Assembly (NCBI RefSeq): GCF_900119085.1
Contig: NZ_FPIQ01000002.1
Location: 1-64,000, forward strand
From: Nitrosovibrio sp. Nv17
Lineage (GTDB): Bacteria; Pseudomonadota; Gammaproteobacteria; Burkholderiales; Nitrosomonadaceae
Direction: 5' to 3'
DNA: 64,000 nt
Part shown: piece by piece, positions 27,802 through 31,179 of the stretch
Layout: every line of letters starts with the position of its first letter
Position numbering within the stretch: the first letter of the stretch is position 1
Notes under the pieces: generated by a model
Seen by the model: the letters and a program-made list of their open reading frames with translations, nothing else
Database searches by the model: none
Told to the model about the DNA's origin: nothing
Translations under genes and position numbers: made by a program

Positions 27802-29775
27802 ATGATGGAGCGCCGGGCTGCTCCGCGCATCCTTCCGGGGGAACATCGGTCTTCCGGCATGCCTGCGAGAGGAGAATCCGGATACTACACACGCCGGTTT
27901 CGCGTCTTCGGCACCCTGTTTCTGGTCAGTGCCGCCATCGGCCTGGCATACGACTACAGCCGCCCCGCAATCTACCGCAGCAGTGCGACGCTCCTGACGT
28001 CCGCGATGACCGCCATCGACCGGGAGAGCGGCGACGCGGACATCCAGCATGTCGCCATCCAACGGCAGGTGCTGCTGGGAAGCGACCTGATGGAGGCAAC
28101 GCTGTCCCGGCTGAAGGAGGCGGGCCGGCTTCCATCTCATTTCGCCGCGTCCGATCTGCAGGTGCAGCTGCATGCCGATCCCGTCCCCGAAACGAATATC
28201 GTGGAACTCCGCGCGGAAGGATCGGATCCGGCCTTCCTGCCGGTATTGGTCAATACGTGGATCGATGCGTATCTGGATACGCGTGAACGAGAAGTCCGGC
28301 AGGTAGCAGGCGATACGCGCCGCGTCCTCGAAGACGAACTGCAGGGGCTGGCTGAAAGGATCGATGCCGCGCGGAAGGAGCTGCAGTCCTTCAGGACGGC
28401 GCACGACATTTCTTCCACCGGGCGGGAGGAAAATGAGGCGCTGGCCCACTTCAAGGCGTTGACCGATGCGTTGAGCCGGGCAAATGAGGAGGAAATCAAG
28501 GCCCGGGCGAACGTCGAGGCGATCCAGTCGGCCATCCTGCGCGGCAAGCCGGTGGTGCCGAACGAGGAAAAGGGCAGCGTGCTCGAGCTCGAGGTACGCC
28601 TGCAGGGTTTGCGCCAGAAACTGATGGATCTGGAGGGGAAATACACGCGTGAATACATCGAACTGCATCCCGAGTACAAATTCATTCCCGAGCAGATCCG
28701 AAAGCTGGAGGAAGAGGTCACGGGCAGGCACAGGGAAGGCCGGGATGCTGCGCTGGAGGATGCGGAGGTCGCCTATTCCGCTGCACGGCAGACCACGCGG
28801 GAATTGCGCGCGCAGTTGGATGCCCATAAACACCGGACTGCCTCGTTCACGACGGAGTTTGCCCGCCACGACGCGCTGAGCGCCGACCTGGAGAGCCTGG
28901 AAAAGCTTCATCGCGAAACCCAGGAGCGGCTCACGCTGGTCAGGACGGGGCAGAAGGAAAAATATCCCCAGGTGGCGGTCATCAGCCGGGCGCATGAATC
29001 CACGGCTCCTGTCAGGCCGGACTACGGTGGCGACGCCTTGATCGTGCTGGCAGGATCCCTGCTGCTGGGATTGCTGGGTGTCTGGCTCCTCGAATATCTT
29101 TCCCGGAAAAATGAAGGGCGGTCACCGCTGATTCCGGTATTCGAAGTGCATCACGCCTTTGCAGGTGGAGACCTGCCCGATCGTTCGCGCATGCAACCCG
29201 CCCCGCTGGGCCATGGCGCGGTTCCCGCCCTGGCCGTTGCCGCGGAAGCCAGGGAGCTTTCCAGCCATCACCTGAAAACGCTGCTCAAGGCCGCCAACCC
29301 GAGGGCGAGGCAGATGATCGGCCTGCTGCTCAGCGGGCTGGACATGGACGAGATCGTCGCCCTGAAGCCGGAATGGATCGACCTGGAGACAGGAACCCTT
29401 TCCATCGCTGGACGCACGCCAAGAATCCTGCCGCTGAGCGGTGGGCTCAGATCACTGCTGGAACAGACGGAAGGCCGCGTCGCGTGGAATCCGGGCGATC
29501 CGGATCTGCGGATCGATCTTTCCGCTGCGTTGGTATGCGCTGCGGTGGATTCGGGTCTGCCGGATCCGGAATCCGTCACGGCCTGGACGATTCGCCACAG
29601 CTACATCGTCTATCTGGTGCGCCAGGGGATACGCCTGTCGGATCTCGAGCGCATCGTGGGTCACGTGGAACCCGCCGCCATGTCGAGTTACAGTCGTTAC
29701 TCGCCGCAACAGCCGGGACGCCTCCTCGAGGAAGTCGAGCTTTTCCATCCCGCCATGATCCTGGACATCCAGTAA
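27802..29775 (+). CDS. Wzz/GumC-type polysaccharide co-polymerase fused to a degenerate tyrosine-recombinase-like domain
   Basis: A 657-residue inner-membrane protein. TM1 is about residues 36-52. The periplasmic part (55-405) starts with a Wzz domain (YRSSATLLTS) and has long coiled coils (170-240, 260-380). A proline/glycine motif and TM2 follow (PVRPDYGGDALIVLAGSLLLGLLG, 403-432). This is the chain-length regulator layout of EPS systems. After TM2, where Wzc-type proteins carry a tyrosine kinase, there is instead a cytoplasmic domain (about 488-640) that reads as a phage-integrase fold: LLLSGLDMDEIVALKPEWIDLETGTLSIAG, WTIRHSYIVYLVRQGIRLSDLERIVGH and the Tyr nine residues after that His. 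R598, H621 and Y630 match catalytic positions, but the first Arg is D514 and the usual His is W595, so cleavage activity is doubtful. A start at TTG 27790 is possible. PEP-CTERM genes nearby suggest an exosortase-linked EPS context. Confidence 0.8.
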   Translation: MMERRAAPRILPGEHRSSGMPARGESGYYTRRFRVFGTLFLVSAAIGLAYDYSRPAIYRSSATLLTSAMTAIDRESGDADIQHVAIQRQVLLGSDLMEATLSRLKEAGRLPSHFAASDLQVQLHADPVPETNIVELRAEGSDPAFLPVLVNTWIDAYLDTREREVRQVAGDTRRVLEDELQGLAERIDAARKELQSFRTAHDISSTGREENEALAHFKALTDALSRANEEEIKARANVEAIQSAILRGKPVVPNEEKGSVLELEVRLQGLRQKLMDLEGKYTREYIELHPEYKFIPEQIRKLEEEVTGRHREGRDAALEDAEVAYSAARQTTRELRAQLDAHKHRTASFTTEFARHDALSADLESLEKLHRETQERLTLVRTGQKEKYPQVAVISRAHESTAPVRPDYGGDALIVLAGSLLLGLLGVWLLEYLSRKNEGRSPLIPVFEVHHAFAGGDLPDRSRMQPAPLGHGAVPALAVAAEARELSSHHLKTLLKAANPRARQMIGLLLSGLDMDEIVALKPEWIDLETGTLSIAGRTPRILPLSGGLRSLLEQTEGRVAWNPGDPDLRIDLSAALVCAAVDSGLPDPESVTAWTIRHSYIVYLVRQGIRLSDLERIVGHVEPAAMSSYSRYSPQQPGRLLEEVELFHPAMILDIQ

Positions 29776-30205: not shown

Positions 30206-31033
30206 CTATCGAGCTTGTCTGCGGCGAGCGAAGCCGAAGCCGAGCAGGCCCAGGCCCACCAGCGCGAGCACACCGGGCTCGGGCACCTGGCTGGGCTGGC
30301 ATCCGGGCGCGGTCGGATTGGCCGTGCAGAAGTCGATCGTCTCTTGCAGCTTGGCAGTGGCGAAGGCGGTGACGAAATTCTCAACCACGGTCTGGTTGGT
30401 GGTGTTCAGGCCCAGGAGATTGAATACCTGGCCATGATTTCCCTCTGCCAGCGCCTTGTAGGAATTGATCGTGCTGCTGCCGTCCAGCACGGCGTTGTAC
30501 AGCGCGTTGTTGTCCTTGAGCAGGTCGTCCAGAATGGACGCGGTGACGGCGCTGCCGCCGACCGCTCCTCGGCCGATGGTATCGCCGTTGCTGGGCTCGT
30601 CGGTGAAGATGATGATGTTGAGCACCGCGTCGGGACGGAAGGAGAACAGCGAGCTTTGCCCATCCAGCGCATTCAGCGCGAAGGCCGAGGCGGTGTAGCC
30701 CGGCTCCGCGCTGCCGCTGGAGACGAGCCCGGCTGCGGCGGCAGCGAACCCGGCCGGGTTGGTGAGGTCGGTCACCAACCGCGGTACCGCTGCGCCGTTG
30801 CCGTAGCCGACGAGGCCGTAACGGGCGTCGACGCCGCCGGCCGAAAGGATCGAGGCGAACAGACCGATATTGTTGCGCAGGTTGGCCTGGACGTTGCTCA
30901 TGGATCCCGATTCATCCACGATCATGATGATGTCGGTACGAATCTGGGCGGCCTGGGCGGTGACGCCGAGACCGAGCAGCGAACCCGTGAGCAGGGCTGC
31001 CTGACATAGTTGTTTGAATTGTCTGAATTTCAT
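30206..31033 (-). CDS. Secreted VWA-domain PEP-CTERM protein
   Basis: A 275-residue exported protein. The signal peptide is about 1-29 (LCQAALLTGSLLGLGVTAQA). A von Willebrand A domain begins with the MIDAS motif IIMIVDESGSMS near 37-48 and continues through IIIFTDEPSNGD near 160. The C-terminus is a PEP-CTERM sorting signal: VPEPG, a hydrophobic helix (VLALVGLGLLGFGF) and ARRRQAR. The ATG at 31033 has a good GGAG site at the right spacing; the reading frame upstream is not needed. The exosortase that should process it is not in the window. VWA PEP-CTERM proteins are thought to be surface or biofilm-matrix adhesins. Two Cys near the C-terminus (FCTANPTAPGC) may form a disulphide. Confidence 0.9.
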   Translation of the reverse strand: MKFRQFKQLCQAALLTGSLLGLGVTAQAAQIRTDIIMIVDESGSMSNVQANLRNNIGLFASILSAGGVDARYGLVGYGNGAAVPRLVTDLTNPAGFAAAAAGLVSSGSAEPGYTASAFALNALDGQSSLFSFRPDAVLNIIIFTDEPSNGDTIGRGAVGGSAVTASILDDLLKDNNALYNAVLDGSSTINSYKALAEGNHGQVFNLLGLNTTNQTVVENFVTAFATAKLQETIDFCTANPTAPGCQPSQVPEPGVLALVGLGLLGFGFARRRQAR

Positions 31034-31179
31034 GAACATCTCCAATTATTGTGGTTACAGGATGCATCCCTCTTGCGGCTGCGATGCGATGTGCAGCCAT
31101 GCATCATCAAGCAATATTCATGCCATGTATGGGTTCGTGGGATTACAACGGCTTGGAGGGGGAGACCCCTGGATGGATG

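What the first reader, a model, noticed from the sequence alone, without database searches (positions are those of the whole stretch)
27802..29775. Wzz/GumC-type co-polymerase fused to a tyrosine-recombinase-like domain
Chain-length regulators of exopolysaccharide systems usually end after TM2 or carry a cytoplasmic tyrosine kinase. Here the same cytoplasmic position is taken by about 150 residues that read as an integrase catalytic domain. R598, H621 and Y630 are present with the normal H-to-Y spacing. The first catalytic Arg is Asp (D514) and the HxxR histidine is Trp (W595), so it is probably a repurposed, non-cleaving DNA- or protein-binding module. A membrane protein that senses polysaccharide and touches DNA or a partner through such a fold would be new to me. 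The sequence shows the fusion; the function is inference.
Basis: partly seen in the sequence, partly recalled or inferred. Interest (0 to 1): 0.88.

Follow-up and report, generated by a model that had tools for sequence, protein, structure and literature searches.

The report
Polysaccharide co-polymerase with dead recombinase domain
Many ammonia- and methane-oxidising bacteria carry a membrane protein of the kind that steers sugar-polymer export, whose inner end is a DNA-recombinase fold that has lost its cutting residues and turned acidic, so it probably grips proteins rather than DNA; in the nitrifiers it comes and goes together with a protein-sorting enzyme, exosortase A.

Summary
The fusion is real. 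One 657-residue ORF joins a Wzz/GumC/Wzc-type polysaccharide co-polymerase (PCP; residues 1-436), a disordered linker and a Xer/integrase catalytic fold (481-657). It is no artefact: 65 full-length members (window included) carry it, 49 of the other 64 from named ammonia or methane oxidisers.

The recombinase domain is dead in all 65: first Arg 0/65, HxxR His 0/65. The replacements vary, so D514 and W595 are not conserved. It is under purifying selection (median omega 0.17) and acidic (pI below 7 in 64/65), whereas the matched domains of six other integrase-family genes in this genome are basic. That argues against DNA binding.

No EPS or exosortase locus adjoins the gene across lineages. In the Nitrosomonas/Nitrosospira family, however, it tracks exosortase A (XrtA): of 125 genomes 47 have both, 75 neither, 3 are discordant. 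The genes lie at least 131 kb apart in 9 of 9 genomes with both on one contig, and 6 of 7 fusion changes share rpoB-tree branches with XrtA changes. In methanotrophs the exosortase link is looser.

Best reading: an accessory PCP of the XrtA/PEP-CTERM system whose cytoplasmic module, where Wzc has its kinase, is a domesticated recombinase fold used for protein contacts. Function is inferred.

The parts
27802..29775 (+). Fusion gene, 657 aa plus stop; start codon 27802 or 27805
   Evidence: Translation; start by comparison with homologues
27892..27963 (+). TM1 of the co-polymerase part (residues 31-54)
   Evidence: Helix 26-53 in the full-length model; hydrophobic stretch read from the sequence
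27964..29025 (+). Periplasmic PCP domain with long helices (residues 55-408)
   Evidence: TIGR03007 match 131-390; Wzc and PslE profile hits; model helices 145-200, 212-246, 257-280, 294-387
29026..29109 (+). TM2, preceded by conserved prolines (residues 409-436)
   Evidence: Helix 408-437 in the model; P403 nearly invariant and P406 invariant in 65 members
29110..29241 (+). Disordered, fast-evolving linker (residues 437-480)
   Evidence: pLDDT below 50 for 438-479; mean pairwise identity 0.23; median omega 0.28
29242..29772 (+). Catalytically dead tyrosine-recombinase domain (residues 481-657)
   Evidence: catalytic positions counted; pI 5.35 in the window copy (residues 478-657)
29341..29343 (+). 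Codon for D514, position of the first catalytic Arg
   Evidence: 0 of 65 members have R here
29584..29586 (+). Codon for W595, position of the HxxR His
   Evidence: 0 of 65 members have H here
29593..29595 (+). Codon for R598, second catalytic Arg
   Evidence: R in 56 of 65
29662..29664 (+). Codon for H621, position of the catalytic His/Trp
   Evidence: H in 10 of 65, Y in 34 of 65
29689..29691 (+). Codon for Y630, position of the catalytic Tyr
   Evidence: Y in 57 of 65

Best explanation
The gene encodes an accessory polysaccharide co-polymerase of the exosortase A (XrtA)/PEP-CTERM exopolysaccharide system. Two membrane helices and a long periplasmic helical domain form the PCP part, as in Wzc and Wzz. 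On the cytoplasmic side a flexible linker of about 40 residues carries a domesticated, catalytically dead Xer-type recombinase domain, in the place where Wzc carries its tyrosine kinase. That domain most likely serves as a protein-contact module, either holding neighbouring PCP subunits together or docking a cytoplasmic partner of the export machine, and not as a DNA-binding or DNA-cutting unit.

Shown here: the domain make-up, loss of catalysis, conservation, acidity, purifying selection, and co-inheritance with XrtA in the Nitrosospira/Nitrosomonas family. Inferred: ring formation, chain-length or export role, protein binding, and the partner.
For: PCP part: (TIGR03007 matches 65 of 65 members at E 0.001). 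Recombinase fold. Dead: first Arg 0/65, HxxR His 0/65; at most 4 of 6 canonical positions met in any member. Kept by selection: median omega 0.17 in the domain, 0.11 periplasmic (40 pairs each), 0.28 linker (39 pairs). Acidic: mean pI 5.15, 64/65 below 7, against pI 8.9-9.9 for the matched domains of six other integrase-family genes of the same genome. XrtA coupling: fusion in 48 and XrtA in 49 of 125 family genomes, 47 shared, 75 with neither; on an rpoB tree of 80 of these genomes 7 fusion and 8 XrtA changes, 6 of the 7 on identical branches, one mismatching tip, G101, 75% complete; dependent-evolution model better by 2dlnL 42.8; linkage does not explain it.
Against: No conserved neighbourhood ties the gene to an EPS or exosortase locus. 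In the methanotroph family the tie to exosortases is loose: 38 of 44 genomes with a match against 38 of 77 without have an exosortase, and two largely complete genomes (G523, G573) keep an intact fusion with none found at E 1e-20. Six genomes of one methanotroph genus have a homologue that ends about 60 residues after TM2 without the domain, so the domain is dispensable there. Class-wide, 121 of 127 exosortase-bearing genomes lack the fusion. No PEP-CTERM-type sigma-54 site was found upstream of the window copy. In 8 loci, mostly named methanotrophs, a SNF2-type helicase gene precedes the fusion, which could be read as a DNA context. The tree test has limits: parsimony, G073 set to XrtA-positive by me, optimiser started from only six points, boundary rates. 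Whole-domain acidity does not exclude a local basic patch. No partner was identified.
Confidence: 0.55

Rival explanations
1. Membrane-tethered DNA-binding regulator: the PCP part senses polysaccharide or envelope state and the dead recombinase domain binds a DNA site, in the manner of the recombinase-fold phage repressor MrpR (also called YopR).
For: Same fold; MrpR/YopR (8a0a E 5.5e-3, 8bj6 E 8.9e-3) and the phage repressor SroF (9rd5 E 1.2e-2) are among the Foldseek hits. MrpR is described as a DNA-binding protein of recombinase fold that lost recombinase function (PMC10516654, abstract and outline seen). R598 and Y630 are mostly kept. A SNF2-type helicase gene precedes the fusion in 8 loci.
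Against: Acidic domain in 64 of 65 members against basic integrase-family domains in the same genome; hairpin 2-3 residues shorter than in L137 and 4a8e (my reading); only a disordered linker precedes the domain, so there is no core-binding domain, which in recombinases (recalled) forms half of the DNA clamp; no neighbouring gene shared across lineages.
Confidence: 0.15
2. Phosphotyrosine or substrate platform: the conserved Y630 and Y633 (YSxYSP) are targets of a separate tyrosine kinase of the exopolysaccharide system, so the domain replaces the tyrosine-rich tail of Wzc (tail recalled).
For: Y630 Y in 57/65, Y633 in 53/65, P635 in 64/65. The domain follows TM2, where Wzc has its kinase (position of the kinase recalled; Wzc match).
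Against: Y630 is the ancestral catalytic Tyr and may stay for packing; no kinase was tied to the gene here.
Confidence: 0.12
3. Relic: a captured integrase domain without function, kept only because it does little harm.
For: Catalytic residues lost in different ways; domain absent in six genomes of one methanotroph genus and in Litorirhabdus L088.
Against: Median omega 0.17 over 40 pairs; invariant G512, E517, R541, Y601, Q608, G620 in 65/65; kept in ammonia oxidisers, methanotrophs and other gammaproteobacteria at 31-62% domain identity to the window copy.
Confidence: 0.1
4. Part of ammonia/methane oxidiser physiology (copper membrane monooxygenase or intracytoplasmic membranes) rather than of the exosortase system.
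For: 54 of 71 named loci are from ammonia or methane oxidisers (my count of the titles, one Burkholderiales MAG labelled AOB included).
Against: In the class sample 3 of 6 fusion genomes lack AMO/PmoA PF02461, and 8 of 11 PF02461 genomes lack the fusion; within the family that holds Nitrosomonas 77 of 125 genomes lack it; the search patterns came from Nitrosospira-like sequences, which biases the list.
Confidence: 0.08

Closest known systems
Wzc / Wzz / GumC polysaccharide co-polymerases (PCP)
   Same: Two TM helices, conserved prolines before TM2, large periplasmic helical domain; profile hits to Wzc and PslE, fold hits to Wzc, WzzE and KpsE
   Different: Cytoplasmic part is a dead recombinase fold instead of nothing or a tyrosine kinase (the usual forms are recalled)
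XrtA-system chain-length protein TIGR03007 and EpsF TIGR03017
   Same: Nearest named PCP families: E 1e-16 and 1.2e-14 for the window copy; TIGR03007 matched by 65 of 65 members, EpsF by 63
   Different: Scores far below the equivalog cut-offs (60 against 279 bits, 54 against 423); extra C-terminal domain; no neighbourhood shared with an exosortase locus
Xer/integrase tyrosine recombinases (XerA 5hxy, XerC-like 4a8e, P2 integrase 5dor)
   Same: Catalytic-domain fold and motif spacing
   Different: First Arg and HxxR His lost in 65 of 65; hairpin shortened; acidic; no core-binding domain; membrane-anchored
Recombinase-fold phage repressor MrpR (YopR); by fold match also SroF
   Same: Recombinase fold kept after loss of recombinase function, as stated for MrpR (PMC10516654, abstract and outline)
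   Different: Those are DNA-binding phage repressors; this one is on a PCP and acidic

Membership tests
Polysaccharide co-polymerase (PCP) | Two TM helices flanking a large periplasmic domain | tested here: met
   Model helices 26-53 and 408-437 with helical domain between; Wzc/WzzE fold hits
Polysaccharide co-polymerase (PCP) | Sequence match to Wzz/GumC/Wzc family models | tested here: met
   TIGR03007 in 65/65 at E 0.001; PF02706 Wzz in 31/65 and PF13807 GNVR in 25/65 at E 0.1; the window copy itself has no Wzz Pfam hit
Polysaccharide co-polymerase (PCP) | Oligomeric ring; effect on polymer length or export | not testable with these tools
   Needs experiment
XrtA-system chain-length protein TIGR03007 (equivalog) | Score above the curated cut-off 278.85 bits | tested here: not met
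   60.3 bits
Active tyrosine recombinase | Catalytic Arg-I | tested here: not met
   0 of 65
Active tyrosine recombinase | HxxR His (or Lys/Tyr) | tested here: not met
   H 0, Y 0, K 1 of 65; window has W
Active tyrosine recombinase | Catalytic-domain fold | tested here: met
   XerA 5hxy TM-score 0.69 over the query, E 1.2e-6
Active tyrosine recombinase | Nucleophilic Tyr and Arg-II | tested here: met
   Window copy has both; Tyr 57/65 and Arg 56/65 in the family
Recombinase-fold DNA-binding repressor (MrpR type) | Sequence-specific DNA binding | not testable with these tools
   Only indirect: acidic domain
XrtA/PEP-CTERM system component | Same phylogenetic profile as XrtA | tested here: inconclusive
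   Met in the Nitrosospira/Nitrosomonas family; looser in the methanotroph family, tested with PF09721 only; class-wide 6/6 fusion genomes have an exosortase but 121 of 127 exosortase genomes lack the fusion
XrtA/PEP-CTERM system component | Sigma-54/PrsR-type promoter upstream | tested here: inconclusive
   Good sigma-54-like site 78-84 nt upstream in 3 of 71 starts examined (L036, L085, L037), none in the window; the activator motif ('motif 1') was not tested

The most novel reading that the evidence does not exclude
The recombinase's habit of handing its C-terminal tail to the next subunit in a cyclic complex (recalled for Cre/XerD) has been turned into the gear of a polysaccharide machine. 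In this reading dead recombinase domains under the membrane form a ring that sets or switches the PCP ring, doing without phosphorylation what the kinase domains of Wzc do, and serve the XrtA polymer to which sorted proteins are delivered.
Probability: 0.15. Interest if true: 0.88.

Novelty: new variant of a known kind. Interest (0 to 1): 0.66.

Why it matters
PCPs were known to me (recalled) with a bare C-terminus or a tyrosine kinase. This is a third form, shared by many nitrifiers and methanotrophs, with a DNA-enzyme fold turned into a membrane-machine module. It is also a dispersed gene that follows exosortase A through repeated gains or losses, which gives the little-understood XrtA/PEP-CTERM system a new candidate component that can be tested by gene removal. 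For recombinase evolution it is a domesticated, acidic branch with catalytic residues lost but fold under selection. None of the titles and abstract beginnings listed by my eight paper searches (three of them found no paper) reports this architecture; the library is open-access only and the listings are partial.

Tried and rejected
Active recombinase: rejected, key residues absent in 65 of 65. Frameshift or assembly artefact: rejected, single open frames of 655-691 aa in 23 genomes and 65 full-length members. Conserved operon: searched in 71 named loci plus the window with a simple ORF caller and flanks of at most about 10 kb, many shorter; none shared by all lineages. In 10 loci, mostly named methanotrophs, genes clustering with a TIGR04283-type glycosyltransferase (7) or a fatty-acid hydroxylase (3) follow, and in 8 of these a gene clustering with a SNF2-type helicase precedes (only the L049 genes were annotated). 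Copper monooxygenase as the partner: weak. Sigma-54 promoter: not in the window copy. PslE was a possible precedent, because its chain is about 660 residues and the match stops at its residue 489. I could not read its C-terminal part. PslE is not among the 50 of 167 listed fold hits of the recombinase domain, and the passages seen of PMC6813494 only call it a Wzz/Wzc homologue, so this stays open.

One search used a query in the wrong reading frame (29220 instead of 29221) and is disregarded; searches replaced it. One search aligned minus-strand loci unturned; one search replaced it. The residue table at the end is off by one; one search replaced it. The dN/dS set contains five saturated distant pairs (L081-L092, L081-L097, L081-L098, L092-L098, L097-L098) that were left in the medians. 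Seven of 71 loci (L080, L084, L087, L088, L090, L093, L100) were left out of the 65-member set because they are cut, broken or lack the domain. In the rpoB tree 80 of 125 genomes were used, only 3 of them from the window's genus, and G073 was counted as XrtA-positive because its exosortase match is split over two frames. In the single-trait fits the reverse rate went to zero, so I claim neither gains nor losses, and the simulation based on them (minimum 11 mismatches in 3000 runs against 1 seen) is a poor null. In one search I picked, after seeing the data, 27 methanotroph genomes with short exosortases; 24 of them have the fusion, which I do not lean on.

Full report
WHAT IS THERE. The ORF at 27802-29775 (+) is a single open frame of 657 residues. 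Residues 31-54 and 409-436 are membrane helices around a long helical periplasmic domain, residues 438-479 are predicted with pLDDT below 50 (disordered), and residues 481-657 form a compact domain, mostly above 90 (full-length model pLDDT 84.6, pTM 0.45). The folded domain alone is predicted with pLDDT 92.8 and pTM 0.89.

N-TERMINAL PART. The window protein matches NCBIfam TIGR03007 (XrtA-system chain-length determinant, E 1e-16) and EpsF (E 1.2e-14), far below their equivalog cut-offs. All 65 collected members match TIGR03007. A profile of the family finds Wzc (7ni2, E 8.2e-11) and PslE (9v6l, E 2e-5) among solved structures. The full-length model finds Wzc (E 6.4e-11, TM-score only 0.29), WzzE and KpsE. 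It is a PCP-type protein.

C-TERMINAL PART. Pfam alone is sub-threshold (22.3 bits against 27.1), but NCBIfam XerA (E 1.4e-8), the family profile (4a8e, E 1.8e-10) and Foldseek (5hxy, E 1.2e-6, TM-score 0.69 over the query; 25 matches at E 0.001 or better) agree. The 50 listed rows of 167 are integrases, Xer, Cre and other recombinases, MrpR/YopR and SroF. PMC10516654 (abstract and outline) states that MrpR (YopR) is a DNA-binding protein of recombinase fold without recombinase function.

CATALYTIC RESIDUES. In 65 members, the first catalytic Arg is T 37, S 17, D 7, N 2, K 1, E 1, never R. The HxxR His is E 30, D 14, A 8, G 5, W 2, T 2, Q 2, K 1, R 1, never H. The second Arg is kept in 56, the His/Trp position is H in 10, and the Tyr is kept in 57. 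No member meets more than 4 of the 6 canonical positions. G512, E517, R541, Y601, Q608 and G620 are invariant. So what is conserved is the loss of catalysis and the fold, not D514 or W595.

SELECTION AND CHARGE. Over 40 pairs with dS 0.05-1.2 the median omega is 0.11 (periplasmic), 0.28 (linker, 39 pairs) and 0.17 (recombinase domain). The domain has mean pI 5.15 (range 4.37-7.95), with 64 of 65 members below 7. The six other PF00589 genes of the same genome, cut to the matched stretch, have pI 8.9-9.9; one of the six is broken by a stop. Together with a hairpin shortened by two residues relative to L137 (my reading) and by three relative to 4a8e, this speaks against a DNA-binding surface of the usual kind.

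DISTRIBUTION. The same fusion is in 22 of 23 genomes of the window's genus group, the window's own included; the exception, G002, is 80% complete. A scan of named genomes gave 71 loci: by title 33 are ammonia oxidisers (Nitrosospira, Nitrosovibrio, Nitrosomonas and one MAG labelled AOB), 21 methanotrophs, and 17 others, among them Thiohalocapsa, Sedimenticola and Litorirhabdus (the patterns derive from Nitrosospira-like sequences, so the list is biased). The window is therefore from a Nitrosospira-like ammonia oxidiser (inference). In a class-wide sample 6 of 369 genomes have the fusion.

NEIGHBOURHOOD. No gene family adjoins the fusion across lineages. Each lineage has its own context. In 10 loci, mostly methanotroph, co-directed genes clustering with a TIGR04283 glycosyltransferase (7) or a fatty-acid hydroxylase (3) follow, and in 8 of these a SNF2-type helicase gene precedes; only the L049 genes were annotated. 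In the window, a VWA protein with a PEP-CTERM tail lies convergent at 30206-31045.

LINK TO EXOSORTASE A. In the family of 125 genomes the fusion is found in 48 and XrtA (TIGR03109, at 1e-60) in 49. 47 genomes have both, 1 has the fusion only (G073, whose exosortase match is split over two frames), 2 have XrtA only (G101 and G002, 75% and 80% complete), and 75 have neither. Of the 41 genomes with an exosortase but no XrtA match, only G073 has the fusion, and no fusion genome is without an exosortase. On an rpoB tree of 80 of these genomes the fusion needs 7 changes and XrtA 8. Six of the seven fusion changes fall on the same branches as XrtA changes; the seventh is a clade of 8 against an XrtA clade of 10 that includes G101 and G098, and only the tip G101 mismatches, with G073 set to XrtA-positive. 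A dependent model of evolution is better by 2dlnL 42.8 with 4 further parameters. The genes are at least 131 kb apart in 9 of 9 genomes that have both on one contig, so linkage does not explain it (the other 38 could not be tested).

RESULTS AGAINST A STRICT LINK. In the methanotroph family 44 of 121 genomes have a match, broken, partial and domain-less ones included. An exosortase (PF09721, at 1e-20) is present in 38 of these 44 and in 38 of the 77 others. Of the six exceptions, G607 (internal stop), G619 (truncated) and G552 (only residues 473-654 matched) have broken or partial genes and G600 is 79% complete, but G523 and G573 are intact. Six genomes of one genus carry a PCP homologue that stops about 60 residues after TM2, with no trace of the domain found in the fetched stretch, while G601 of the same genus keeps the domain. 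Of 127 class-sample genomes with an exosortase, 121 lack the fusion. In the same sample copper monooxygenase PF02461 is present in 3 of the 6 fusion genomes.

MECHANISM. I take it to be an accessory PCP of the XrtA polymer system with a recombinase fold used for protein contacts in the cytoplasm. The PCP ring, the polymer role and the partner are inferred from the family. The protein-contact role is inferred from acidity, loss of catalysis and selection. In Haft et al. 2006 (PMC1569441; abstract, passages and the tables section seen; the author name is recalled) the PEP-CTERM system genes of N. multiformis (printed there as Nitrospira) and N. europaea are themselves scattered, as their locus tags show, so a further dispersed component is not odd. 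The upstream sigma-54 motif they describe was found convincingly in only 3 of 71 starts examined here and not in the window.

VERDICT. Real, conserved, a new domain architecture of a known protein kind.

Noticed in passing
window 30206-31045 (-): VWA-domain protein with a PEP-CTERM sorting tail, convergent with the fusion gene.
   Followed up: partly
L224-L229 (methanotroph genus g300): Homologues of the co-polymerase that end about 60 residues after TM2, in genomes that carry long exosortase frames; natural versions without the recombinase domain.
   Followed up: partly
L088:9998-11467: Litorirhabdus homologue of 490 aa without the recombinase domain; its only Pfam match is Wzz.
   Followed up: no
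L036, L037, L085 upstream of the fusion gene: Good sigma-54-like sites 78-84 nt before the start in three Nitrosospira, absent in most other loci.
   Followed up: no
L049:6592-14082 and similar loci: SNF2-type helicase gene before, and glycosyltransferase TIGR04283, fatty-acid hydroxylase and TIGR04282 genes behind the fusion in part of the methanotrophs.
   Followed up: partly
G000:C40:3-284 and G000:C8:1-255: The two AmoA-type PF02461 matches of the window genome lie at contig ends, as expected if repeated copies broke the assembly.
   Followed up: no
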